Shown: piece by piece, positions 1-10,728 of the stretch
How positions within the stretch are numbered: position 1 is the stretch's first letter
Layout: each line of letters opens with the position of its first letter
Source: Azonexus sp.
Lineage (GTDB): Bacteria > Pseudomonadota > Gammaproteobacteria > Burkholderiales > Rhodocyclaceae
Length of the DNA stretch: 10,728 bases
Direction: 5' to 3'
Assembly: GCA_030697085.1 (NCBI GenBank)
Contig: JAUYQT010000197.1
Span: 1 to 10,728 of the forward strand
Notes under the pieces: model-generated
Told to the model about the DNA's origin: nothing
Seen by the model: only the letters and a program-made list of their open reading frames with translations
The model's database searches: none
Made by a program: the position numbers and the translations under genes

Positions 1-327
1 TTCCTTGACGAGATTCCAGTTGGCGACTAGCGAGCCGAGAAAAAGCAGCGCGGTGGCCGGTAAAAAGAGCACCGAAAGGCCGTCGACCGCAACCAGGTAG
101 TGCACGTTGAGGCTGGCGATCCACGGCGTGCGTTCGATTAGTTGGAAGCGTTCGCCGCTTGGTGCGAAGCTGAAAAGCGCAAGAGTCGAGATGAGCAGGG
201 TCAGGAGCAGCGTCAGTGCAACAACATGGCGAGCGGCACGCGTTGGCAACAGCCAGAGCAGCGCTGCGCCGCCGAGCGGCAAAAAAATGAGTAGTGAGAG
301 GAGTGGTAGGTTGAGCGGCAGACTCAT
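1..327 (-). CDS. NuoM-like proton-conducting antiporter subunit, N-terminal part (runs off left edge)
   Basis: Only the first 109 codons are present; the gene continues past base 1. The ATG at 327 overlaps the stop of the preceding gene as ATGA, which fixes the start by translational coupling. The fragment is hydrophobic: a membrane segment at about residues 8-27, another at about 34-53, a polar loop (about 55-75), then the family motif VAVDGLS (79-85) followed by a third membrane segment. The same VDG(L/I)S motif sits at almost the same position in the two other NuoM-like proteins of this operon, so this is a further paralogue of the complex I/Mrp antiporter family. By context it is a membrane subunit of the DabA-linked inorganic carbon system. 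The key charged residues of helices 5, 7, 8 and 12 lie outside the window, so whether it can move protons cannot be judged. It could equally be called NuoN- or MrpD-like. Confidence 0.85.
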   Translation of the reverse strand, partial: MSLPLNLPLLSLLIFLPLGGAALLWLLPTRAARHVVALTLLLTLLISTLALFSFAPSGERFQLIERTPWIASLNVHYLVAVDGLSVLFLPATALLFLGSLVANWNLVKE

Positions 328-1826
328 TGGCTGAATCTCGCAGCGGCAGTCTGGCTGGCTATTTCGGTCAGGCGTAGCCAGGGTTCGGTGAAAAAGCCAA
401 TGGCCAGCATGGCGGCGAGGGCGATGCCGCAGACTAGATATTCCATGGGTAATGTGCGGTCGACGTTGAGTTCGCGGCCTTCCTTGTGCGGCGAGAGAAA
501 GGCGCGCTGGAAGGCCCAGAGCAGAAAGCCGGCGGCGGCGACGTTGCCGAGTGCGGCAGCGACGGTCGATAGCGCGCCAAAGCGGTCAATCGCCGCCTCG
601 AGCACCAGATGGGCGGCGTCGAAACCCGGCGTGCCGGGCATGCCGACGATGGCCAGGCCAAAAGTGAGGAAGGCGATGGCGAGGAAGGGAATGCGCTCAA
701 AGAGTCCCGACAGTTCGTGTAACTCAGTGGTGCCGGTGCGCCGGAAGACGAAGCCGACAATGAACCACATGCCGGTGGCGGCCAGCCCGAAATTGGCGGC
801 GAGCAGGATGGCGCCTTGAATGCCGGATTCGTGCAGGCTGAAGACGCCGATGACGAGCAGGCTGGTATGGCTGACCACGGCGAAGGCGAGCAGACGGCGC
901 AGATTGGTCTGCTGGAAAGCGAGCGCCGCCGTGAAAAAAATGCCGGCCATGGCGAAGCCGACGATATAGGGCTGCCAATATTGGACCGCTGCCGGGGTCA
1001 GGGGCAGGACAAAACGCACCATGCCGTAGATCCCCACCTTGACGCCGACCATCAGCGCCGGGGCGACGGCGATCAGGCCGTGTTGCGCCATGTTGGGTAG
1101 CCAGCCATGCAGTGGGAAAAGCGGCGTGCGTACCGCGAGGCCATAGAAAAGTAGATAAAAAGCGGCGGTCTGGAATTTGCCGGGGGGCGCTGCGCCGACC
1201 AGTTCAAATAGATCGAAGCTCCAATAGCCGCCATTGGCATCGGCATAGGCCCAGCTCAGCACCACACAGCCGGCACTGAAAAGCGCCCAGCCGAAGGCTT
1301 GATACTGGATGAAGCGGGCCAGCGCGAGAATTTCGGCTCGTGACGAGGCCCAGCGCCGTAGCAGGAACACGACGGCCCATAATTCCAGCGCCGAAAAAGC
1401 GCAGAACCAGGCGAGATTGACCGTGACCAGCATGCCGACCAGGCCGGCTTCGGCGAGCAGCAAGACCGCAAACAGCCGGCCCGGCGAGATCATGCCGCGG
1501 CTCATGCCATACAGGGTCATCAGGAAGGTGAGCAGCGCGGTGACGAGTAAAAAGAGCAGGCTAAGGCCGTCGACCGCGACATGGTAGGCAATCAAATCAA
1601 CCCGTTCGGCCAGTTGCAACGCCGGCAGCAAGGGGTCGATACGGCTGGTGGCGACGATGCAGAGCAGCAGTTCGGCCAGCGCGAAGACCTTGCCGGCAAT
1701 GACTGCGGTCGACCGTTCTTTGAAGGCAAAAACCACGAGCGCGCCAATGATGGGCAGTAACTGAAGCCAGATCAGCAGGGGCAGGCTGGATTGTTCCTGC
1801 CAGAAAATCTCGCTCAGCGGGCCCAT
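324..1826 (-). CDS. Divergent NuoM-like proton-conducting antiporter subunit
   Basis: A 500-residue polytopic membrane protein of the NuoL/M/N-MrpA/D antiporter family, with roughly 14 membrane segments. Landmarks are VAVDGLS (83-89), FSALELW with the helix-5 glutamate E148, VRTPLFPLHGWLP (232-244), VGVKVGIYG with the helix-8 lysine K263, and NLRRLLAFAVVSH (308-320), which matches the NuoM DIK..AYSSISH region. It departs from typical NuoM at two points of the proton path: the helix-7 lysine (FGVKMP in the first operon gene) is arginine R233, and the helix-12 glutamate of the GxxGFxxE motif aligns with A405, with D403 and E410 close by. The ATG overlaps the upstream stop as TAATG. It is probably a membrane partner of the DabA/NuoL-like proteins in a bicarbonate-accumulating complex. 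Database names are likely to be NuoM or proton-conducting transporter subunit; a true complex I role is unlikely because no other nuo genes are adjacent. Confidence 0.9.
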   Translation of the reverse strand: MGPLSEIFWQEQSSLPLLIWLQLLPIIGALVVFAFKERSTAVIAGKVFALAELLLCIVATSRIDPLLPALQLAERVDLIAYHVAVDGLSLLFLLVTALLTFLMTLYGMSRGMISPGRLFAVLLLAEAGLVGMLVTVNLAWFCAFSALELWAVVFLLRRWASSRAEILALARFIQYQAFGWALFSAGCVVLSWAYADANGGYWSFDLFELVGAAPPGKFQTAAFYLLFYGLAVRTPLFPLHGWLPNMAQHGLIAVAPALMVGVKVGIYGMVRFVLPLTPAAVQYWQPYIVGFAMAGIFFTAALAFQQTNLRRLLAFAVVSHTSLLVIGVFSLHESGIQGAILLAANFGLAATGMWFIVGFVFRRTGTTELHELSGLFERIPFLAIAFLTFGLAIVGMPGTPGFDAAHLVLEAAIDRFGALSTVAAALGNVAAAGFLLWAFQRAFLSPHKEGRELNVDRTLPMEYLVCGIALAAMLAIGFFTEPWLRLTEIASQTAAARFSQ

Positions 1827-3352
1827 TAGAGAATCACCACGAAAGTCGCCATCACCGCCATCATCAAATAGCGCGGCTGTTCGAGCAGGTTTTCCAGGGT
1901 TTGCAGGTAGCTGCCGAGACGGCGCAGCAGTTGCTCTCCGATGCCGCCGCGGCCACGGAGCAGCAGACGGTTTTCAATTCGCTGCAAGGCTTCGGCGCTC
2001 GCGGCCAGAAGGTGGCCGGGCAGGCCGCTGGTCAGAATCAGCGGGTATTTGGGATCAATCGGCTGGCCGCGCCCGGGCTCGCCGATGGCGTGGTCGATGA
2101 AGTTTTCTTCCAGATTGCGGAGGTCGCGGGCGAACGATTCGGTCGGTTGAAGGAGTAGCGCTAGCCCTAATTTATCGAGCCAGAAATGTTGCTGCGCTGC
2201 GGTGTAAAGGAGCTGGTTACGGCACAACCAGGCGGGCGGCGGCGCTGGTCGCCCACGGGTGATGACCAGCCAGGAAGGAGCGAGGAGAAATTGCCAGGTC
2301 CGCCAGGCGGCGTGCAGGCAAAGATGGACGGTCGCCAGCGTTGTCCAGCCGAGGCCGATTTCGATGAACATCAGCGCGACTTGAAACACCGTGGCAAAGA
2401 TCAGTGCCGATTTGACATCGGTCTGGACCAGGCCGCAGAGCCAGGCGTAGAGGGCGGTCAGCGTACCGATGAAAATCAGGACGGCCAGCACCTCCGGCAG
2501 TTGGGTCAGTAAGGGTTCGAGGCGCAACATCAGGTAAACACCGGCATGCACCATCACGGCGCCGTAAAAAATGGCCGATGATGGGGTTGGTCCTTCCAGC
2601 GCCCGGGTGATCCACGGCGTGAAGGGTAATTGGGCCGATTTGGCCAAGGCGGCGAGGACGAAGCCGAGGGCGATCAGGCGGGCGTTGGCGCCGCTGAGTG
2701 TTGCGCCGGTGGTCAGTACCGGCCACTCGAAACTACCCAGCCAGGCGGCAGAAAAACCCAGGGCGAGGAGGAATCCGGCATCGCCGCCGCGGTTGGTGAT
2801 AAAGGCAAATAGCGCGTTTCCGCTTGCCACTGGGCGTTGCCAGGCATAGGCAATGAGCAAAAACGACGCAATGCCGCACATTTCCCAGCCGATAAAGGCG
2901 AGCAGACCGTTGCCGGCGAGTATTACGATTTGAATGCCGGCGAGAAAGAGGCTGAGGATAATAAAGAAGCGGTGAAAGCCCACTTCGCGGTGCAGGTAAT
3001 TGGCTGAAAAACGTACGACCAGCCAGCCGATTAGCGCGGTTAGGGTGGAAACACTGAGTGACAGGCGATCAAGCAAAAAAGAAATGCTGCCATGCCAATT
3101 GCCGCTGGCGAACCAGATACCGAGGACGCGATGCCCCGGTACGGCACCGTGCCACAACGCGTTGCCATCGATGGCGAGGAGCAACAATAAGCCGCCAAGT
3201 GCAGCCAGGGCGGCTAGGCGGGCGGTTAGCGGTTCGGCGCTATCGCCGCTGGCCCGGCTGAGGAGAACGCGGCTGCCGATGATAAGCACGGCGAAGAGCG
3301 GCAGCGCCGGTACCAGCCAAACGACATCGGCAAGGTGAGCGAGTAGGTTCAT
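1826..3352 (-). CDS. NuoL/DabB-like antiporter subunit, shortened form beside DabA
   Basis: A 508-residue membrane protein with a NuoL-type core: LLDRLS (93-98), a Y-L-H-R-E-G-F-RFF stretch (119-130), GWEMCGIASFLLI with helix-5 E157, FITNRGGD (184-191), AKSAQLPF with helix-7 K238, EGPTPSSA (253-260), MVHAGVYLMLR with H269, and VQTDVKSALI with K314. After the helix-11 region (HLCLHAAWRTWQFL, 343-356) it jumps to a segment resembling the NuoL C-terminus: WLDKLGLALLLQPTESFARD (391-410), then an amphipathic stretch and a last membrane helix (494-508). Helices equal to NuoL 12-15, with the helix-12 lysine, are missing, and the helix-11 lysine is R351. NuoL is usually just over 600 residues. The start at 3352 was chosen over an in-frame start at 3439 because the latter adds 29 polar residues and overlaps DabA; no strong ribosome site is seen before it. 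As the nearest neighbour of dabA it is the best candidate for the ion-conducting partner DabB. Confidence 0.88.
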   Translation of the reverse strand: MNLLAHLADVVWLVPALPLFAVLIIGSRVLLSRASGDSAEPLTARLAALAALGGLLLLLAIDGNALWHGAVPGHRVLGIWFASGNWHGSISFLLDRLSLSVSTLTALIGWLVVRFSANYLHREVGFHRFFIILSLFLAGIQIVILAGNGLLAFIGWEMCGIASFLLIAYAWQRPVASGNALFAFITNRGGDAGFLLALGFSAAWLGSFEWPVLTTGATLSGANARLIALGFVLAALAKSAQLPFTPWITRALEGPTPSSAIFYGAVMVHAGVYLMLRLEPLLTQLPEVLAVLIFIGTLTALYAWLCGLVQTDVKSALIFATVFQVALMFIEIGLGWTTLATVHLCLHAAWRTWQFLLAPSWLVITRGRPAPPPAWLCRNQLLYTAAQQHFWLDKLGLALLLQPTESFARDLRNLEENFIDHAIGEPGRGQPIDPKYPLILTSGLPGHLLAASAEALQRIENRLLLRGRGGIGEQLLRRLGSYLQTLENLLEQPRYLMMAVMATFVVIL

Positions 3353-3393
3353 CGGGAAAATCTCGGCGCTGCGGTAAAAATGCCAATCTTCAT
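3349..3393 (-). other. 14-codon mini-ORF bridging dabA and the NuoL-like gene
   Basis: The ATG at 3393 overlaps the dabA stop as ATGA. The frame reads MKIGIFTAAPRFSR and ends in a TGA that overlaps the ATG of the next gene (again ATGA, at 3352-3349). It therefore fills exactly the only sizeable gap between genes in the operon. No strong Shine-Dalgarno site precedes the downstream ATG, so ribosomes finishing dabA could pass through this frame and restart. A coupling role is inferred from geometry alone; the peptide itself resembles nothing I recognise and chance is possible. Confidence 0.35.
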
Positions 3394-6300
3394 GCTGGCC
3401 TCCCCAACAAGAGCGCTGGTGGCAAGGCTTCGCGCTCACCGGCGAACCATTCGCTCGAGTGCGCCACCTGGGGCAATACGGCCTTGCCAGACCAGGCGAG
3501 CCAGCCGCGGCGCGGGCAGTATTGTTCGATGGCTGCGACCATGGAGTCGTCGGCTGGCCCCAGGGGCGACGGGTTTTTTGCCGCCAAAATGATCCAGCTA
3601 TTGTTGATCAATTCTTGTAGTGCGGGTTGGCGGTTGAGGATGGCGCTGAGAATGGCGGTTGTCTGTTCGACGACGACGAGCAGGCGCATCGGTTCGTGAA
3701 TTTCAACCATCTGCCAGGGCAGACCGGTGCGCAGGTCCGAATCGGCGCCTTCCATGACGCCGAACAGGCCGGTGAGGTTGTGGGTGATTTTTGAGCCACA
3801 ACCGAAGCGTTCGTTATCGACGCTGGAAAAATAATATTCCAGGGCGATGCCGGCGCCGACCGGGGCGGTGGCGAGCAGGATGCTTTCGAGAATGTGGCCC
3901 TCGTCATCCGTCGTCGGATCATGGGAGATCAGGAAGACGCGGCGGTCGAGGAATAGCCCGCGGCTCATGCTGCGGCGGCCGATAAAGGCGGCGGCATTGT
4001 TGGCGTGGCCGAGTTCTGGCCGGGTTTGGGAAATGTCGTGGGCGCGGGCAAGCACATGCTGCTGTCCTTGCCAGGGGGAAAGCCGTTCCGGGGCTGAGGC
4101 GAAGCGTCGACAACGCTCGGCGGCATGCGCCCGACAGGCTTCGCTCAATTGAGCGAGCAACTGGTCAAGCGCGGCTTGCCAGGTATTTGGCACCTGCGCG
4201 AGGTCGTACCATTCGACAGTGTCGTCGCAAGTGTTGTGCTCGGCGGCGATAAACCAGGTTGTGGGCGGAATCATCAGCCCACGTTTTGCCAGCTCGGCAC
4301 GCACCGCCGGGCGGTTCGCCATCGTCGCAAAGACGCGTGCATTCGGCCCGCCATGGCGGCCCGAGCAGGCGCCGCAATCGTAGGCGGAAAGGTGTGGATT
4401 GTTCTGGCTGCCTGAGCCGTGGCCGAGTAGCAGAACCAGCGGGGCGAAGGCGTCGGTCAGGCCGATGCTGCGCAGGAAGGTTTCAATGCGGTCAACCTGC
4501 TCAGTTTCGCTAAATCCGGTTTGTGGCTGTTCGGGTGTGGCGGTAGTTGCGATGGGCGGCTCGCTTGTCAGGCTGAGTTCGGTACTGACGCTGCCATCGA
4601 ACTGTCGGCGCCAGCGCTGGTTCGCCGAGCCGAACCAGCCGGGGGTAAGACTGTTGGCGAGCAATGAAGCGAGCGCTGGCCCAGCCGCTAAAGCAGTGAG
4701 TAACGGCCCACTAATTGCGTGGCGTCGTGTTGATTGATAGAGCCGCTCGCGCCAGCGCAGGCGCGTTTCCCGTCGCTGTGTATGCACGGTAAAGCTGGGT
4801 TTGGCCTCGTGCGTTGGCAATTCACGCACCAGATTTTTTGGCTGCACAACGACCGGGCAAAGCGCTGTTTTGTCGGTATCGTCCAGCCCCTGCCAATACA
4901 TGGCGACGCCAAAAAACCCGGCGGCGCCGTAAGTGGCAATGTTCGGGGCGATTTCCTCGAGATGCCGGCGGGTGCCTTCTTCGCGGTCGTCCATGCAGAA
5001 TATGACCTGCGCTGACGGACTGGGCGGGGTTGCTCGCCGTGGGTGGTTGGTGGCGAGCGCGACAAATAGTTGTTCGCGGTAATGACGTTCGTAGGCAAGT
5101 AGCCAGATTTGGCTGCGTTGCATCGGTGTCAGGTGGTCGGCACAGTCCACTAGTGCGCTGATTTCCCTGTGCTCGATTGTCGATAGATCGGCCAGTGTCA
5201 GATGTAATCGACGGCTCAGTCCGGCCAGGCGCCAGGCTCGGCTTGCGGCTGTGCCATTGGCGCTCGTGCCGGCAATCGATTCAGCCAGCTTTTGCCATAA
5301 TTCATCGCTGCCGGTCGCGTCGGCGCGTACTTGATTCGCCGATTGGTGCTGCAATTCCTCCGGCAGGCTTTGACGGCGCAGGGCGTCGCGGACAAAAAAT
5401 TCGGCGGGATGGCTGGCGTAGTAGTCGCTGAATTCAGCGAAATTCATCGACGTGCCGCTCAGTCGCGTCATCAGATCATCACAAAGCAGGCGCTCGAGCA
5501 GCACGCGAACGGCCAGGTAATCGAGCATCGCGACCGGCGTGCCGTCGCCGCGCCCTGGGTTGCGCTCGCGCCAGAGCACCATGCCGGACCAGCCGGGGAG
5601 TTCCAGGCTCAGGCGTTGCAGGTAGCCGTACCAAAGGTCTTGATCGGGAATCAGGTGGGCGAGTGCCTCGAGCAATACGTCGAGAGGGTCGTCAACCAGG
5701 TGCGTGATTTCGTCGCGCACATTGGGTAACTCATCAAGTTCCCAGAACATATCCTGGCTGGCACTGGCTCGCCAGGCGGCGAAAAATCCCTGGCCCTGCG
5801 CCGGGTTGCGCCAGGCGGCAACGCCGAGGTCAAGATGAGCGGCAAGTTGGCGTTGCAGGATGTAGCGGACGCGCTCCAGCACATCCTCGCCGCTGAGATG
5901 TTCGAGCAGGCTGCGTAGGGTCCAGTCCTGGCCGACACGTTGGCAAAGTTCGCGCCAGCGAGTAATGGCGCTGGTTTGCCAGTCAGTGAGCGGCGGCTCA
6001 AGCATGGCGTCAACGGCAGCATCTGCGGTCAACGTTAAAAAATGGGCAAAAAATGGATCGTTTGCCAGCTCGTGTTCACGTTTCAACCAGTCAATGCGCT
6101 GAGCACTCGGTGTATCCGGTGACTCGAGCAGGCTGGCGAGCAGGATGTCGCGTTGCGTCAGGGCGCCGATCAGCGGCTGGTCGAGATCCGGTAAGCCAGC
6201 CTCGTCGAGCGCAGCGCACAGGTCGTCCCGAGTGATCCGCCCCTTGTCATAACATTCGCGGAACTTGCTCTCTGGCCAATAGGTCGTGGCGCCGGTGAGC

Positions 6301-6467
6301 CGCTGCGCGGCGGCCAGTGCTTCGGGAAATGGCAGGTGCTGAAAGCCATGCAAGGTGTTGTGATGGACAAAGTCACGGATCGGCGCTTGTGCCGGCAGCA
6401 CATGTGTCAGGTGCTCGACCCACTGAGCCAGGCGTTGGCGGATGGGGACTGTGTGGTCGAGGTTCAT
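3390..6467 (-). CDS. dabA: DabA: DUF2309 carbonic-anhydrase-like subunit of inorganic carbon transporter
   Basis: A 1025-residue soluble protein of the DUF2309 (PF10070) family, the DabA half of DAB carbon accumulation systems, thought to sit on the cytoplasmic face of its membrane partner and hydrate CO2 at a beta-carbonic-anhydrase-like zinc site. The expected zinc ligands are visible: C491 and D493 in FCMDDREE, H683 in LLGHGSGSQNNPH and C698 in YDCGACSG. The H-to-C spacing of 15 equals that of Halothiobacillus DabA (H524, C539), and R495 follows in the C-x-D-x-R arrangement. The N-terminus has the family signature FVHHNTLHGFQHLPF (33-47); another conserved stretch is EHNTCDDTVEW (743-753). 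It is long for the family, with about 140 more residues before the zinc site than the Halothiobacillus protein. The start at 6467 follows a GGGGGATGAG ribosome site and lies one base after the upstream stop; an in-frame start 87 bases earlier would only add residues read inside the upstream gene. Neighbours on both sides are antiporter-type membrane proteins, as expected for DabA-DabB. Confidence 0.93.
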   Translation of the reverse strand: MNLDHTVPIRQRLAQWVEHLTHVLPAQAPIRDFVHHNTLHGFQHLPFPEALAAAQRLTGATTYWPESKFRECYDKGRITRDDLCAALDEAGLPDLDQPLIGALTQRDILLASLLESPDTPSAQRIDWLKREHELANDPFFAHFLTLTADAAVDAMLEPPLTDWQTSAITRWRELCQRVGQDWTLRSLLEHLSGEDVLERVRYILQRQLAAHLDLGVAAWRNPAQGQGFFAAWRASASQDMFWELDELPNVRDEITHLVDDPLDVLLEALAHLIPDQDLWYGYLQRLSLELPGWSGMVLWRERNPGRGDGTPVAMLDYLAVRVLLERLLCDDLMTRLSGTSMNFAEFSDYYASHPAEFFVRDALRRQSLPEELQHQSANQVRADATGSDELWQKLAESIAGTSANGTAASRAWRLAGLSRRLHLTLADLSTIEHREISALVDCADHLTPMQRSQIWLLAYERHYREQLFVALATNHPRRATPPSPSAQVIFCMDDREEGTRRHLEEIAPNIATYGAAGFFGVAMYWQGLDDTDKTALCPVVVQPKNLVRELPTHEAKPSFTVHTQRRETRLRWRERLYQSTRRHAISGPLLTALAAGPALASLLANSLTPGWFGSANQRWRRQFDGSVSTELSLTSEPPIATTATPEQPQTGFSETEQVDRIETFLRSIGLTDAFAPLVLLLGHGSGSQNNPHLSAYDCGACSGRHGGPNARVFATMANRPAVRAELAKRGLMIPPTTWFIAAEHNTCDDTVEWYDLAQVPNTWQAALDQLLAQLSEACRAHAAERCRRFASAPERLSPWQGQQHVLARAHDISQTRPELGHANNAAAFIGRRSMSRGLFLDRRVFLISHDPTTDDEGHILESILLATAPVGAGIALEYYFSSVDNERFGCGSKITHNLTGLFGVMEGADSDLRTGLPWQMVEIHEPMRLLVVVEQTTAILSAILNRQPALQELINNSWIILAAKNPSPLGPADDSMVAAIEQYCPRRGWLAWSGKAVLPQVAHSSEWFAGEREALPPALLLGRPA

Positions 6468-6468
6468 C

Positions 6469-7914
6469 TCATCCCCCGAATAGCCGTGCCATCTGGCTGA
6501 CGCTGCCGGCGACAAGATCAAGCAAGGGCGCCGGCCAGACGCCAAGGGTGACAATGCTGAGCGCGAGAATGCCGGCCGCGGCGCTTTCGGTTCGCGTCAT
6601 ATCGGCGATTTGCATCGGCGGCCCTTTCAGGCACAGGCGACCGATGACGCGCAGGCTGTAAGCCGCGGCGATCAACATGCTGAGAAGGATGATCGAAATC
6701 CAGCCACCCCAGCGGCCGAAACCGCCGACCAGTGCATGCAGTTCGGCAATGAAGCCGGCGCTGCCCGGCAAGCCAATCGCGGCGAGTAGCGCAAAGGCGG
6801 TAAAAAAAGCGAAGCGCGGTGCCTTGCCGAGCAGTGAGCCGTAATCGGCCAGATCGCGACTGTGCGTGCGCTGGTAGAGCAGGCCGACAATCAGAAAGAG
6901 CAGACCGGCGGTCAGGCCGTGCGCCACCATCTGCATTACGGCGCCAGTCAAGCCGGTCACATTGAGGCTGGCGATGCCGAGTAGGACAATGCCCATATGT
7001 GAAATCGACGAATAGGCGACCATCGCTTTCAAATCCTGCTGCCGCCAGGCGAGGATGCCGCCATAAAGCAGGCTGATAAAGGCCAGTAAAGCCAGCCAGT
7101 CTTGCGCGGCGAGAAGCGCGGCAGGCAAGGTTTCGGCGGCACGAATCAGACCGTAAGCGCCCATTTTGAGGAGTACGCCGGAGAGCAGAATCGACACCGG
7201 GCTGGGCGCCTCGACGTGGGCCAGCGGTAGCCAGCCATGTAGCGGAAAAACGGGCATTTTGACGCCGAAGCCAATAAAGAAGCCGGCGAAAATCAATAGC
7301 TGCGTTTGCACCGGCAAGTTACGCCCACCTGCGGCCATGTCGGCCATGGCAAAACTGTGGCCGGGTGCCGCGTCATAGAGGAAGAGCAGGGCGACCAGCA
7401 TGAAGACAGAACCACCCAGCGTATACATAAAGAAATTAAGCGCTGCTCGCTGCCGGTTCGGCCCCCCCAGGCGGTCGATCAGGAAAAATAGCGGGAGTAG
7501 GGTGGCTTCCCAGAAAACATAGAACAGGGACCAGTCGCGGGCGGTGAAGACGCCGAAAATGGCGGACTCAAGCAGCAGTACCAGGGTGAAATAAAGCCGT
7601 GCCCCGGCTTCCATTCGGTGTGAAACCAGCACGGCAATGAGCGTCAGCAGTGCGGTCAACAGCAACATGGCCAGCGAAATGCCATCGACCCCAAGCGCAA
7701 AATAAGAACCGAGCCGGGCATTCCAGGCCCGGCTTTCAAACATCTGTACCGCTGGCCCCGCCGGATCAAAGTGGGCGGCCAGCCAGAGCGAATAGGCGAG
7801 CGCCAGCAGTGAAAAAAACATCGCTACCTGCCAAAGCAGGACAGGTCGGCGCGCCGGAAAAACAGCCACGGCGACAGCCCCGATGACCGGCAGAAAGACC
7901 AATGCCTTCAGCAC
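6469..7914 (-). CDS. NuoM-like proton-conducting antiporter subunit (canonical residues)
   Basis: First gene of the minus-strand operon: 481 residues, about 14 membrane segments, very close to NuoM of complex I, where this family moves protons through a chain of buried charged residues. The chain looks intact: helix-5 E136 in FYVFWEATLLPLFFLI, helix-7 K219 in GFGVKMPVFPLHGWLP, helix-8 K250 in LSGVLLKMGAYG, K296 in QDLKAMVAYSSISHMG, and helix-12 E391 in LPGSAGFIAEL. The VDGIS motif is at 76-80. The start is a GTG at 7914; a GGAGCGGGG stretch upstream can serve as ribosome site, and no upstream alternative fits. Its TGA is separated from the dabA ATG by one base, so the two are surely co-translated. 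It is not part of a nuo operon here, so the role is inferred to be energy coupling for DabA. Mrp-type cation/proton exchange is the main alternative. Confidence 0.93.
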   Translation of the reverse strand: MLKALVFLPVIGAVAVAVFPARRPVLLWQVAMFFSLLALAYSLWLAAHFDPAGPAVQMFESRAWNARLGSYFALGVDGISLAMLLLTALLTLIAVLVSHRMEAGARLYFTLVLLLESAIFGVFTARDWSLFYVFWEATLLPLFFLIDRLGGPNRQRAALNFFMYTLGGSVFMLVALLFLYDAAPGHSFAMADMAAGGRNLPVQTQLLIFAGFFIGFGVKMPVFPLHGWLPLAHVEAPSPVSILLSGVLLKMGAYGLIRAAETLPAALLAAQDWLALLAFISLLYGGILAWRQQDLKAMVAYSSISHMGIVLLGIASLNVTGLTGAVMQMVAHGLTAGLLFLIVGLLYQRTHSRDLADYGSLLGKAPRFAFFTAFALLAAIGLPGSAGFIAELHALVGGFGRWGGWISIILLSMLIAAAYSLRVIGRLCLKGPPMQIADMTRTESAAAGILALSIVTLGVWPAPLLDLVAGSVSQMARLFGG

Positions 7915-7964
7915 GCGCCGGCCCCGCTCCCGTTTGCCGAATCTATTGTTGTTTTCATGCGGTA

Positions 7965-7995
7965 ATTATGCCAGCGTCGCCTGCCATATATACAA
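7965..7995 (-). promoter_or_regulatory. Candidate promoter for the antiporter-dabA operon
   Basis: On the minus strand, TGG followed by CATAAT (7973-7965) gives an extended -10 element with five of six consensus bases. The -35 is weak: TTGTAT (7995-7990) at a long 19-bp spacing. It lies about 50 bases before the GTG start. No repressor or activator site could be assigned. Confidence 0.35.
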
Positions 7996-8038
7996 GCGAA
8001 AGCTGAACCAATGCGGCTATCCCGCCTCAAACCGACGT

Positions 8039-8067
8039 TTGACACCGCATGTCCGCTTCGTTAAATT
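8039..8067 (+). promoter_or_regulatory. Sigma-70 promoter for the peroxiredoxin gene
   Basis: A perfect TTGACA (8039-8044), a 17-bp spacer and TAAATT (8062-8067, four of six consensus bases). Transcription would start near 8074, leaving a leader of about 36 bases with AAGGAG at 8098-8103, seven bases before the ATG. No convincing OxyR-type site was seen. This intergenic region (7915-8110) has no gene. Confidence 0.7.
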
Positions 8068-8110
8068 TGAAGCTTTCCCCCAATAGCAATAATGAATAAG
8101 GAGTTCCCCT

Positions 8111-8710
8111 ATGGCCGTTCTCGTTGGCAAGCAAGCCCCGGATTTCACTGCAACTGCTGTTTATGGCAACAATGAAATCAAGGAATTAAAACTGTCGCAA
8201 TTTATGGGCAAGCCGGTTGTTCTGTTCTTTTACCCGCTCGACTTTACCTTTGTCTGCCCGTCTGAACTGATCGCCTTCGATCATCGTCTGGAAGAGTTCA
8301 AGCAGCGCGGCGTGGAAGTAATTGGTGTCTCCATCGACTCCCAGTTCACCCACCTGGCGTGGAAGAACACTGCGATCAAAGATGGTGGCATCGGTCAGGT
8401 GGGTTATCCGCTGGTGGCTGACATCAAACACGATATCTGTCGCGCTTACGACGTTGAACTGGAAGCTGCCGGCGTGGCGTTGCGTGGCTCATTCCTGATC
8501 GACAAAACGGGTGTTGTGATGCATCAAGTGGTCAATATGTTGCCGCTCGGCCGCGATATTGACGAAATGTTGCGCATGGTTGATGCACTGCAGTTCTTTG
8601 AAGAGCACGGTGAAGTATGTCCGGCGGGCTGGAGCAAGGGCAAACCGGGCATGACCGCCAGCACCGAAGGCGTTGCGGCTTATTTGGCCAAGAACGCCAA
8701 GAAGCTTTAA
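8111..8710 (+). CDS. Typical 2-Cys peroxiredoxin (AhpC/TSA, Prx1 type)
   Basis: A 199-residue cytosolic thiol peroxidase that reduces hydrogen peroxide, organic peroxides and peroxynitrite, recycled by a disulfide reductase not encoded here. The peroxidatic cysteine is C49 in [11 protein letters not shown], giving the P42-T46-C49 active-site motif, and the catalytic arginine is R125 (VALRGSF). The resolving cysteine is C170 in GEVCPAGW, which with the C-terminal tail marks the typical 2-Cys dimer class. A third cysteine, C110, is not one of the two catalytic ones. Length matches the Prx1/AhpC family (about 190-200). The ATG has AAGGAG seven bases upstream and a strong promoter, so expression is probably high. 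It is transcribed alone: a terminator follows at once. It diverges from the carbon-uptake operon, and no functional link is shown. Confidence 0.96.
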
Positions 8711-8745: not shown

Positions 8746-8780
8746 AAAACCTCAATCGTTTTTTGATTGGGGTTTTTTTC
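8746..8780 (+). terminator. Rho-independent terminator after the peroxiredoxin gene
   Basis: AAAACCTCAATC (8746-8757) pairs with GATTGGGGTTTT (8765-8776), with one G-T pair, around the loop GTTTTTT. The descending arm runs into an unbroken T tract (8773-8779). It lies 35 bases after the stop codon. The A-rich left arm may also let it work weakly on the other strand. Confidence 0.87.
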
Positions 8781-8781
8781 T

Positions 8782-8810
8782 GCTACAAATCATTATTTTT
8801 GGGCTAGAAT
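8782..8810 (+). promoter_or_regulatory. Weak candidate promoter for the HTH-receiver gene
   Basis: TAGAAT (8805-8810, five of six -10 bases) lies directly after the terminator in an AT-rich stretch. The hexamer at 17-bp spacing is GCTACA (8782-8787), matching only half of the -35 consensus. A promoter is needed here because transcription from the peroxiredoxin should stop upstream. Confidence 0.35.
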
Positions 8811-8813
8811 TTG

Positions 8814-8869
8814 CCGAATTTCTAATTTTAAAAAATGGCGAGTGCTCATGGCTGATTCCGAATTTCTAA
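8814..8869 (+). repeat. 12-bp direct repeat flanking the regulator start codon
   Basis: CCGAATTTCTAA occurs exactly at 8814-8825 and again at 8858-8869, 44 bases apart (about four helix turns). The first copy is just after the candidate -10, the second is within codons 4-8 of the regulator. Placement suits an autoregulatory operator, but this is inferred only. Confidence 0.5.
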
Positions 8870-9435
8870 CTACCCGGCAAGCCGCATTGCGCTTGGGGTT
8901 TTCTCTCGGCACCGTGCAAAACATGGTGGAAAGCGGCGCCCTTGAAGCGTGGAAAACATCCGGTGGCCATCGCCGGATTCCGGTCGCTTCCGTCGAAAAA
9001 CTGCTCGCCCGGCGGCGAAATCTGACTCCCGGGAATCATGACGCAGGAACGCCAATAGATATTCTGATTGCCGAAGACGACCCCACCTTGCAGTTGCTCT
9101 ATCAACTGACCATCGAAGGCTGGGATTTGCCAATCAAGCTGCGCATTGTGGCCAATGGTTTTGATGGCCTCTTGCAGGTTGGGCAGCACGTTCCGGATAT
9201 TCTCATTGCCGACCTGATGATGCCGGGCATGGATGGCTTTGAGATGATTCGGAATTTACGCGCCAACACGACGCTGGCAAGGATGGACATCATCGTTGTG
9301 AGTGCCATTGAGCGTGAAGAAATCAATCAGAAAGGCTTGCCGTCGGACATAACTGTGCTGGGTAAGCCCATACCATTCCATGAAATTAAGGGTTTTTTGC
9401 TCGGCCGTCTGGCTGCTCGCCAGCGGCCGCTTTAA
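8848..9435 (+). CDS. Response regulator with N-terminal excisionase-like HTH and C-terminal receiver
   Basis: A 195-residue protein in two parts. Residues 6-54 form an excisionase/MerR-like winged helix-turn-helix ([20 protein letters not shown], then SGGHRRIP at 38-45), which binds DNA in this family. Residues about 69-190 form a CheY-like receiver with the acidic pair D77/D78, phosphoacceptor D122 in ADLMMPG, S152 and K173 (LGKP), so it looks fully able to accept phosphate. The order is the reverse of most response regulators. The start at 8848 was chosen because the HTH begins there; an in-frame upstream TTG at 8767 would lie inside the terminator. The ribosome site (GGCGAG) is weak. No histidine kinase is in the window; the next gene on the same strand is a chemotaxis receptor. 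Targets are unknown, though a 12-bp repeat around its own start suggests self-control. Confidence 0.9.
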
Positions 9436-9488: not shown

Positions 9489-10728
9489 ATGGGGTTTTTT
9501 GGAAATAGTGCGGCAATCAACAAGATTGATCGCGATATTGCCGCTATCGCCGAAGGCAATGCCGACCTCTCTCATGGGGTAGGTAGTGCTGGCAATGATA
9601 GCGCTGGGCGGATATCCGCCAATATCAACCGCTTTTTTAGTCGGGTCCGCGGCCTGATTTCCCATGCTCGTGAGCGTAGCGTCAGTATTGCCTCCGATGC
9701 CGCCCAAATGAACTATCTGGTGCAGTTGACCGGTGATGCTGTACGCCGCCAGGAGTCCTTGGCGAGTGATGTTTTCGCCTCAAGTAACCGGGTCAATCTC
9801 GCCGTCGGCGAAGTAGCGACAAACTCGGACGCCATTCAGTCATCGACCAAAAATAATCTCGATCTCGCCCAGCGCTCGCTGGAACAGATGGAAACCGTAG
9901 CGTCCACGATGCGCTCGACTAATCAGCATATCGAGCATTTTTCCTCGACAGTCGGCGAACTGCACACCAGTTCGATGAAAATCAACGAAATTGTTTCGCT
10001 GATTAACGACATTTCCGATCAAACCAATCTGTTGGCGCTCAACGCAGCGATCGAAGCGGCTCGTGCCGGTGAGGCCGGGCGCGGTTTTGCGGTCGTTGCG
10101 GATGAAGTTCGCAAACTGGCCGAAAAGGTTAAGACGGCGACGCAGGTCATCGGTCAGAACACGCAGTCAATGATCAATCTGGTTGCCGATACTTCAGCCA
10201 AAACGCAGACCATCGTTGGCGAAGTGACGCGTGCCAACAGCTATATTGAAACATCTGCCGCCGATTTGACGACCATGGTGGGTGATTTCAAGCGCACGAC
10301 GGAACAGCTTTCGACTATTTCCGGCGCTATTTATAACCTGCGCGAAAGCAATCAGACCATTCATCGGGAGGTTGAGGAAATTCGCAATCACTCGGTCGAT
10401 ATTTCCGGCCGTATGAAACAGTGCCTTGATTCTGCCAAGACGCTGCGCGAATCGACAGAAGACCTGCAGTGCACGCTGGCCGACTTTCGTACTGGCAACA
10501 GCAAGTTCGATACTTTGCATGATAAGTGTGCTGGTTTCCGCGATGCAGTACTCGGCATTCTGCAGAAGCTCAATGATCGCGGTGTCAATGTGTTTGACCA
10601 GTCCTACAAGGATATTTCCGGTTCCAACCCGAAGCGTTTCTCCACCGCATACGATAGTCAGTGCGATGGTGAACTGACTCGTCTATATGATGATCTGTTG
10701 CGCGATGTGCCTGGCCTGACCTACTCGC
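9489..10728 (+). CDS. Soluble methyl-accepting chemotaxis protein, signalling domain first (truncated at right edge)
   Basis: The open frame of 413 codons runs to the edge. AGGGGA lies just before the ATG. No membrane segment or signal peptide is seen, so this should be a cytoplasmic receptor. Residues 1-330 are mostly helical; the kinase-control hairpin tip is plain: [20 protein letters not shown] (174-193), then [19 protein letters not shown] (194-212), the part that contacts CheA/CheW. From about residue 335 comes a different region, with [15 protein letters not shown] (347-361), [16 protein letters not shown] (366-381) and [18 protein letters not shown] (393-410). From memory this resembles a C-terminal sensory (Cache-like) domain of some proteobacterial chemoreceptors, but the end is missing, so that is tentative. 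Four cysteines (C312, C328, C347, C392) lie only in the latter half. It follows the HTH-receiver gene by 53 bases and may be co-transcribed with it. Ligand unknown. Confidence 0.92.

What the first reader, a model, noticed from the sequence alone, without database searches (positions are those of the whole stretch)
1..7914. DabA operon with at least four different antiporter-type subunits
Sequence: one DUF2309/DabA protein is packed between a NuoM-like protein and a NuoL-like, a second NuoM-like and a third (partial) NuoM-like protein, with junctions of -4, -1, 37 and 1 bases. Known: characterised DAB systems need only DabA plus one NuoL-like DabB. Inference: this is an expanded, complex-I-arm-like carbon concentrating machine, in which several proton (or sodium) channels in series could drive CO2 hydration with more ion translocations per bicarbonate. 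No hydrophilic complex I subunits are visible.
Basis: partly seen in the sequence, partly recalled or inferred. Interest (0 to 1): 0.72.

Follow-up and report, generated by a model that had tools for sequence, protein, structure and literature searches.

The report
DabA operon with four antiporter-type proteins
A relative of the bacterial CO2-hydrating DAB pump is encoded in a conserved five-gene set with four ion-channel-like proteins akin to the membrane arm of respiratory complex I, with matching changes at the residues that carry protons in the known two-part pump, so it is probably a variant of that pump with a different proton route; nothing has been tested at the bench.

Summary
In detail: DabA lies in a minus-strand operon M1-DabA-L-M2-M3 (L = NuoL/DabB-like, M = NuoM-like; M3 is cut by the contig end). 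Of the 80 closest DabA loci kept, 69 have all five genes, 10 are cut by contig ends and one has DabA apart. M1, M2, M3 and L form four separate clades, apart from the host's own NuoL and NuoM. Gene set and proton-path residues change together. DabA keeps the zinc site, but the finger glutamate that DAB2 needs (E444) is absent in 30 of 30 multi-antiporter DabAs and present in 32 of 32 DabAs without M genes. L keeps the complex I TM5 glutamate that two-gene DabBs lack and ends after TM11 plus a lateral-type helix. M1 and M3 keep all four NuoM residues; M2 is re-wired. Best reading: a DAB variant with a complex-I-like antiporter arm, probably one complex. Several ions per CO2 is plausible but untested, and that idea was outlined in 2017 (PMC5700660). 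A RuBisCO-linked role is not supported.

The parts
6469..7914 (-). M1: NuoM-type antiporter subunit, first gene (GTG start); keeps TM5 Glu, TM7 Lys, TM8 Lys, TM12 Glu
3390..6467 (-). DabA (PF10070), 1025 aa; zinc ligands C491, H683, C698 and dyad D493-R495 present; finger helices modelled at 553-582 and 586-607 with Ala592 where DabA2 has Glu444
1826..3352 (-). L: NuoL/DabB-type subunit, 508 aa; TM1-11, then a long C-terminal helix; E157 (TM5), R188, D191, K238, K314, H347 kept; Y263 and R351 in place of His and Lys
324..1826 (-). M2: re-wired NuoM-type subunit (Ala at TM5 Glu, Arg at TM7 Lys, Lys kept in TM8, Ala at TM12 Glu; D403, H406 and E410 invariant in 32 aligned sequences)
1..327 (-). 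M3: N-terminal 109 aa of a third NuoM-type subunit, cut by the contig end; about 485 aa in relatives, with all four NuoM residues there

Best explanation
The operon encodes a five-subunit variant of the DAB type of energy-driven carbonic anhydrase. DabA is the cytoplasmic zinc enzyme that turns CO2 into bicarbonate. L is its docking subunit: a NuoL cut down to TM1-11 plus a C-terminal lateral-type helix. L, the re-wired M2 and the two canonical NuoM-type subunits M1 and M3 form a membrane arm like that of complex I without redox subunits. In the two-gene DAB2 pump the proton path uses a glutamate on a DabA finger inserted into DabB. Here that glutamate is gone and L ends without NuoL's TM12-15, so I infer that protons enter through neighbouring subunits (M2 next to L, then M3 and/or M1) and that coupling runs along the chain of buried Lys/Glu pairs to L, whose TM5 glutamate is kept as in complex I. 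Ions flowing down their gradient would then drive CO2 hydration one way, possibly with more than one ion per bicarbonate. Shown: gene set, conservation, residue switch, separate clades. Inferred: one complex, subunit order, proton (not sodium) use, direction, stoichiometry.
For: 69 of 80 loci hold all five genes. M1, M2, M3 and L are each one clade (100/100, 100/100, 100/98, 100/100), L sister to two-gene DabB (94/85), apart from the host's NuoL and NuoM. DabA zinc site intact in 64 of 64 rows. E444: 0 of 30 multi-antiporter DabAs (window, 27 in operon, 2 apart); 32 of 32 DabAs without M genes, plus DabA2. An earlier set: 0 of 25 against 5 of 5, one of the 25 (L129) having Asp there. L TM5 Glu: 30 of 30 multi-type (window, 27, 2 apart) against 0 of 24 two-gene DabBs and Ile in DabB2. 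M1 and M3 keep all four residues in 21 of 21 and 19 of 19, then 28 of 28 and 24 of 24; M2 has Arg at TM7 and no Glu at TM5 or TM12 in 22 of 22 and 28 of 28. M2 goes with this DabA: 36 of 36 genomes with M2 have DabA, and no M2 was found in the 32 other DabA genomes (at most three candidates per genome were scored). In two genomes M1-M3-L-M2 is a cluster with DabA on another contig. A rare three-gene set DabA-L-X has an X with most of the M2 signature in 6 of 6. E444 and the ion pairs matter in DAB2 (PMC13144422).
Against: No biochemistry, no co-purification, no multimer model. The finger hairpin is modelled but its insertion into L was not tested. L129 has Asp at the finger position, so an acidic residue is not excluded in every member. 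The DabA-L-X set shows that M1 and M3 are not always needed. The window's genome has a beta-carbonic anhydrase and no RuBisCO hit, so the need for a strong DIC pump is not obvious. Only one proton at a usual membrane potential could already drive large bicarbonate accumulation (inference), so the gain from more channels is unclear.
Confidence: 0.5

Rival explanations
1. DabA, L and M2 form the working DIC pump (M2 supplies the half-channel that DabA's finger glutamate supplies in DAB2); M1 and M3 are a separate ion pump that is only co-expressed.
For: The rare DabA-L-X set has only an M2-like third gene; M1 and M3 look like ordinary complete NuoM-type pumps.
Against: M1 and M3 are present in each of the 69 loci of the 80 that are neither cut by a contig end nor without DabA's neighbours, and M1-M3-L-M2 stay together where DabA has moved away. 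X aligns to the M2 profile only weakly (probability 9%).
Confidence: 0.2
2. The machine runs the other way or serves ion and pH balance: bicarbonate dehydration or bicarbonate flux drives ions out, so it builds or trims membrane potential rather than feeding carbon fixation.
For: No RuBisCO hit in the window's genome and no association in the genus; a beta-carbonic anhydrase is present; COGNAT proposed an exergonic, ion-pumping reaction.
Against: DAB2 and MpsAB act in DIC supply (PMC13144422, sections and passages; PMC6689103, start of abstract in the listing); a SulP gene lies in the fetched flanks of 41 of 80 loci and a CcmM-like gamma-CA in 2 of 80; carboxylation other than by RuBisCO also needs bicarbonate.
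Confidence: 0.15
3. A sodium-coupled bicarbonate carrier of the MpsAB kind rather than a carbonic anhydrase.
For: MpsAB is argued to use sodium (as told in PMC13144422); antiporter-type subunits can carry Na+ in Mrp (recalled).
Against: All zinc ligands and the Asp-Arg dyad of DabA2 are kept in 64 of 64 rows, which a mere carrier would not need.
Confidence: 0.1
4. An operon of leftover complex I duplicates without joint function.
For: All four are homologues of complex I subunits.
Against: Each is its own clade with strictly kept residues across the rows examined; gene order kept in 69 of 80 loci; the set reaches another class.
Confidence: 0.03

Closest known systems
DAB2 of Halothiobacillus neapolitanus (DabA2-DabB2; PDB 9rd0; PMC13144422)
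   Same: PF10070 enzyme with the same Zn ligands and Asp-Arg dyad; NuoL-type partner; L is sister to two-gene DabBs in the tree; helical hairpin at the finger in the model
   Different: Five genes instead of two; no finger Glu444 equivalent; TM5 Glu kept in L (Ile151 in DabB2); His to Tyr and Lys to Arg in L; DabA about 1000-1100 aa against 870
COGNAT clade C neighbourhoods of ybcC/COG3002 (PMC5700660, 2017)
   Same: ybcC upstream of the nuoL homologue, with NuoM (COG1008) and SulP (COG0659) genes nearby; the idea that more membrane subunits may mean more ions
   Different: No statement in the section and passages read on five genes, on which residues change, or on CO2
Membrane arm of respiratory complex I (NuoL/M/N)
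   Same: M1 sister to NuoM; M1 and M3 keep E/K/K/E; L model superposes on NuoL and reaches its lateral-helix region
   Different: No NuoK or NuoJ genes found near the operon; L lacks NuoL's TM12-15; M2 re-wired; the host has separate NuoL and NuoM genes
Cyanobacterial NDH-1 CO2-uptake complexes with CupA/B, NdhF3/NdhD3 (recalled)
   Same: CO2 hydration attached to a complex I-type antiporter arm (recalled)
   Different: Driven by electron transfer with an unrelated CO2-hydrating protein (recalled); L scores lower on ndhF3 (126 bits) than on NuoL (226 bits)
MpsAB of Staphylococcus aureus (PMC6689103; only the start of the abstract seen)
   Same: Relative in DIC supply
   Different: Argued to be sodium-linked (as told in PMC13144422)

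Membership tests
DabA family (PF10070) | PF10070 match over the curated cut-off across the whole profile | tested here: met
   818.5 bits, 1-747 of 747
DabA family (PF10070) | Zn ligands Cys351, His524, Cys539 and dyad Asp353-Arg355 | tested here: met
   C491, H683, C698, D493, R495 in the window; 64 of 64 rows
DAB2-type two-subunit complex | DabA finger glutamate (Glu444) | tested here: not met
   Ala592 in the window; 0 of 30 multi-type against 32 of 32 without M genes
DAB2-type two-subunit complex | Non-acidic residue at the TM5 Glu of DabB (Ile151) | tested here: not met
   Glu157 in window L; 30 of 30 multi-type Glu
DAB2-type two-subunit complex | One NuoL-type membrane partner | tested here: not met
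   Four antiporter-type genes in one row
DAB2-type two-subunit complex | Energy-driven CO2 hydration, rescue of carbonic-anhydrase-deficient strains | not testable with these tools
   needs bench work
Respiratory complex I (NDH-1) | Small membrane subunits (NuoK, NuoJ) and hydrophilic subunits in the set | tested here: not met
   no NuoK or NuoJ match and one weak NuoI match in 96 loci; NuoH, NuoA and other hydrophilic subunits not searched by homology; 4 of 80 loci have a hydrogenase-4-like cluster nearby
Mrp Na+/H+ antiporter | MrpA-type large subunit with small MrpB, C, E, F, G genes | tested here: not met
   no MrpC-like match in 96 loci; L matches NuoL models better than MrpA models and is far under the Mrp cut-offs; MrpB, E, F, G not searched
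COGNAT clade C operons | ybcC upstream of the nuoL homologue with extra NuoM and often SulP | tested here: met
   order DabA-L-M2-M3; SulP within the fetched flanks of 41 of 80 loci

The most novel reading that the evidence does not exclude
A non-redox complex I: a carbonic anhydrase fastened to a four-subunit antiporter arm, in which L and the re-wired M2 together make one composite channel that replaces the DabA finger, while M1 and M3 add two full channels, so that about three ions pass per CO2 hydrated. The DAB family would then be a natural series (one-channel DAB2, DabA-L-X, five-gene) for changing the coupling ratio of one reaction.
Probability: 0.3. Interest if true: 0.82.

Novelty: new variant of a known kind. 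Interest (0 to 1): 0.6.

Why it matters
How ion flow is coupled to catalysis over a distance in complex I is a long-debated question. Here the same antiporter subunits appear to be attached to a simple zinc enzyme without electron transfer, with a clean residue switch between one-subunit and four-subunit versions. If the arm is real, the coupling stoichiometry of a carbonic anhydrase could be measured and changed by removing subunits. It would also correct public names: the named ones among the 120 listed M2 homologues are called complex I subunit 4 or NADH-quinone oxidoreductase subunit M or L, although the canonical residues are lost in the M2 rows aligned. The gene set occurs in Dechloromonas/Azonexus, Accumulibacter, Thiobacillus, Thiothrix, Thiodiazotropha, Methylobacter and others.

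Tried and rejected
Rejected: (1) that the left flank hides a nuo or mrp operon: in relatives no further antiporter-type gene follows M3 in the genus loci and no NuoK-, NuoJ- or MrpC-like gene is near; often a convergent PhnA/SulP pair follows. (2) That the M genes are recent copies of the host's NuoM. (3) A RuBisCO-linked role: no association. (4) Replacement of a missing carbonic anhydrase: all 24 DabA-bearing genomes of the genus have a beta-CA hit. (5) Plasmid carriage: M2 finds nothing in the plasmid collection at E 1e-50.

Led nowhere or weak: Foldseek of the DabA model gave no match at E 0.001 or better; the best was the beta-CA CsoSCA at E 0.0069, and none of the 50 rows shown is DAB2 (the library ends on 2026-04-08). 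X against the M2 profile gives only 9% probability, so the X argument rests on the Pfam hit and four alignment positions, at one of which (TM8) X differs from M2. NuoL K399/D400 fall on gaps for L but on Leu/Phe and Asp/Glu, so that part of the alignment is not reliable and the lack of TM12-15 in L rests on length, model and range of superposition. The promoter scan of 7850-8150 found one sigma-70-like site, on the plus strand.

Limits of the counts: of the 36 five-gene genomes in the phylum sample, 30 DabAs were read for E444; 6 were not (G085, G120, G223 not fetched; G081, G128, G148 in fragments). For the 32 DabAs without M genes, 'without' means none in the fetched stretch and no M2 hit in the genome; a full DabB was seen beside 24 of them, part of one beside L220 and L221, fused in L183, and in 5 no DabB lay in the short stretch fetched. 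L170 was labelled '?' by my script and is counted among the 32. In one search at most three candidates per genome were scored. One search counts 69 complete loci with a score cut, with a looser rule, counts 70. Overlap between the locus sets was not checked.

Papers: PMC13144422 read in sections 8 and 11, outline with abstract, and passages; PMC5700660 section 10 and passages; PMC6689103 and the others in search listings only; the 2021 DAC paper PMC8570276 is not held; Desmarais 2019 is recalled. That no paper describes a five-gene DAB rests on searches, of open-licence papers only, of which capped lists were seen.

Full report
WHAT IS THERE. The window is one whole contig (G000:C252) of a genome whose nearest named relatives with this operon are Dechloromonas and Azonexus. 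On the minus strand five genes follow one another: M1 (7914-6469), DabA (6467-3390), L (3352-1826), M2 (1826-324) and the start of M3 (327-1), with junctions of 1, 37, -1 and -4 bases. Pfam gives PF00361 for M1, L and M2, PF00662 for L and PF10070 for DabA; the 109 residues of M3 match NuoM models in NCBIfam, below their whole-protein cut-offs.

THE WHOLE OPERON. DabA is found in 24 of 36 genomes of the genus, the window's included. Of the 20 loci fetched, 16 are from the genus and all 16 show M1-DabA-L-M2-M3, with M3 split into two frames in L040; the four from other families of the order hold a DabB-DabA pair. No further antiporter-type gene was hit after M3 in these 16; in many loci a convergent small PhnA-type gene and a SulP transporter lie there, in some after another gene. 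So there are four antiporter-type genes. In 96 loci (these 16 and the 80 below) no NuoK-, NuoJ- or MrpC-like gene was found, and one weak NuoI-like match. A scan of the collection of 84,980 species found at least 555 DabA relatives, of which the best 80 were kept. In these, 69 have all five genes, 10 lack some at a contig end, and one (L122, Magnetococcales) has DabA without neighbours of this kind. Hosts include Accumulibacter, Sulfurimicrobium, Thiobacillus, Thiothrix, Thiodiazotropha and Methylobacter (record titles).

THE L122 CASE. L122 has the contig length and the ORFs of G215:C88. In G215, and in G219 of the same genus code, a cluster M1-M3-L-M2 lies on another contig (in G219 M1 is cut by the contig start). 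The four antiporter genes thus stay together when DabA is elsewhere, an argument that they are one unit.

FOUR SEPARATE PROTEINS. In a tree of 51 antiporter sequences, M1, M2, M3 and L are each one clade (100/100, 100/100, 100/98, 100/100). M1 is sister to NuoM (97/87), M2 and M3 are sisters (94/90), and L is sister to two-gene DabBs (94/85), next to NuoL. The host's NuoL and NuoM lie on C80, and further antiporter clusters on C102 and C412. The four are not recent copies of the host's complex I genes.

THE RESIDUE SWITCH. The DAB2 structure paper reports that DabA2's Zn ligands and Asp353-Arg355 are needed, that Glu444 on a finger helix inserted in DabB2 takes the place of NuoL Lys399/Asp400 and is essential, and that DabB2 has Ile151 at NuoL Glu144 (PMC13144422 sections 8 and 11). 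In my alignments the Zn ligands and dyad are kept in 64 of 64 DabA rows. Glu444 is present in DabA2 and in 32 of 32 DabAs without M genes, and absent in 30 of 30 DabAs of the multi-antiporter kind (window, 27 in-operon, 2 apart) and in the DabA of a three-gene locus. A first set gave 25 of 25 non-Glu, one of them Asp (L129), against 5 of 5 Glu. In the window it is Ala592 inside a modelled helix 586-607 without acidic residues. In L, the TM5 Glu is present in 30 of 30 multi-type and in 0 of 24 two-gene rows; His254 is Tyr and Lys342 is Arg in all 30 multi-type rows. M1 and M3 keep the four NuoM residues in all rows of two sets (21 and 19; 28 and 24). M2 has Arg at TM7, keeps the TM8 Lys, and has no Glu at TM5 or TM12 (22 of 22; 28 of 28), with D403, H406 and E410 invariant in 32 rows.

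SHAPE. The AlphaFold2 model of L (mean pLDDT 83.8, from 33 sequences) has eleven TM helices, then a helix at 389-423 and low-confidence C-terminal helices (TM counting is mine). It superposes on NuoL: 393 residues at 2.2 A with 7p7e_L, model 8-412 on chain 1-560, so about 160 residues of NuoL (the TM12-15 region) are skipped and the helix falls in the lateral-helix region; this last step is my inference from the ranges. The DabA model (80.2) keeps a helical hairpin at the finger.

ONE-TO-ONE PARTNERS. Among 398 genomes of the phylum, 36 with the window's have an M2 orthologue, with a clear gap from E 1e-174 (1e-102 for one copy broken into two frames) to the next proteins at 1e-97 and above, many of which lie next to M2, that is M3 (at most three candidates per genome scored). 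All 36 have a DabA; in the 32 other DabA genomes no M2 was found. By the kinship labels 34 of the 36 lie outside the class. One genome (G372) carries, besides a DAB of the short kind, a rare DabA-L-X set. There L has the TM5 Glu, DabA lacks Glu444, and X is a weak PF00361 member (33 bits) with most of the M2 signature in 6 of 6 sequences: no TM5 Glu, Arg at TM7, no TM12 Glu. X has His where M2 has the TM8 Lys. The extra, re-wired partner thus goes with loss of the finger glutamate. I read this as M2 or X completing the proton path that DabA's finger completes in DAB2; this is inference. In a DAB of the short kind, DabB and DabA are fused in one frame (L183), which fits direct contact of the two.

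RESULTS AGAINST A CARBON-FIXATION ROLE. No RuBisCO hit in the window's genome (91.7% complete). In the genus RuBisCO is in 15 of 24 DabA genomes and 8 of 12 others (Fisher p 1.0). In the phylum sample 1 of 36 five-gene genomes has RuBisCO, against 113 of 398 overall. A beta-carbonic anhydrase is present in the window's genome. For DIC: SulP genes lie within the fetched flanks of 41 of 80 loci (the genus SulP scores best on DauA and lower on BicA, below both cut-offs), and a CcmM-like gamma-CA lies beside SulP in L096 and L098 (only L096's was scanned against the family library).

PRIOR ART. COGNAT (2017) noted that neighbourhoods of ybcC genes upstream of nuoL frequently contain NuoM and SulP genes, and suggested that the number of membrane genes might relate to the number of ions. 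It does not, in the section and passages read, give the five-gene set, the residue switch or CO2. The DAB2 paper describes two- and three-subunit forms, the third subunit of DAB1 being a small hypothetical TM protein. Five searches of open papers showed no description of a five-gene DAB; most subscription journals are not in that library.

VERDICT. A real, conserved and, as far as searched, largely unremarked variant of DAB with a complex-I-like arm. Composition and residue switch are solid; one complex is likely; multi-ion coupling is a testable guess.

Noticed in passing
window 8111-8710, 8767-9435, 9489-10727 (+): Divergent neighbours: a peroxiredoxin, a protein joining an excisionase-type HTH to a receiver domain, and a methyl-accepting chemotaxis protein; the first two recur beside the operon in many genus loci.
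   Followed up: partly
L114 8475-23147: Thiothrix locus M1-DabA-(DUF559 protein)-L-DabA'-L'-M2-M3: the DabA-L pair is doubled inside the operon; both DabAs lack the finger Glu.
   Followed up: partly
L199 110-5719: Rare three-gene set DabA-L-X, X being a 433-aa divergent antiporter-like protein; besides the query itself six relatives of 46% identity or more were listed, one labelled Cellvibrio.
   Followed up: partly
L183 1-3867: Natural DabB-DabA fusion in one 1288-aa frame in a DAB of the short kind.
   Followed up: partly
L129 (DabA, finger position): A Methylobacter five-gene DabA has Asp where DabA2 has Glu444, the only acidic residue there among the five-gene DabAs aligned.
   Followed up: no
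L096, L097, L100, L105: Hydrogenase-4-like gene cluster (HyfB/E/F, in three of them with a NuoCD-like subunit) near the operon; 4 of 80 loci, two of them Accumulibacter.
   Followed up: partly
L096 6471-7031, L098 5423-6025: CcmM-like gamma carbonic anhydrase next to a SulP transporter upstream of M1; in L096 also a sulfide:quinone reductase-like gene.
   Followed up: partly
L040 6283-8174; G203:C315: M3 is split into two frames in one single-contig genome, and M2 into two frames in G203; described only.
   Followed up: no
G000 contigs C102 and C412: Two further clusters of antiporter-type genes in the window's genome, apart from its NuoL/NuoM and from this operon in the tree.
   Followed up: no
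L122 / L203: DabA without antiporter neighbours in Magnetococcales, with M1-M3-L-M2 on another contig.
   Followed up: yes
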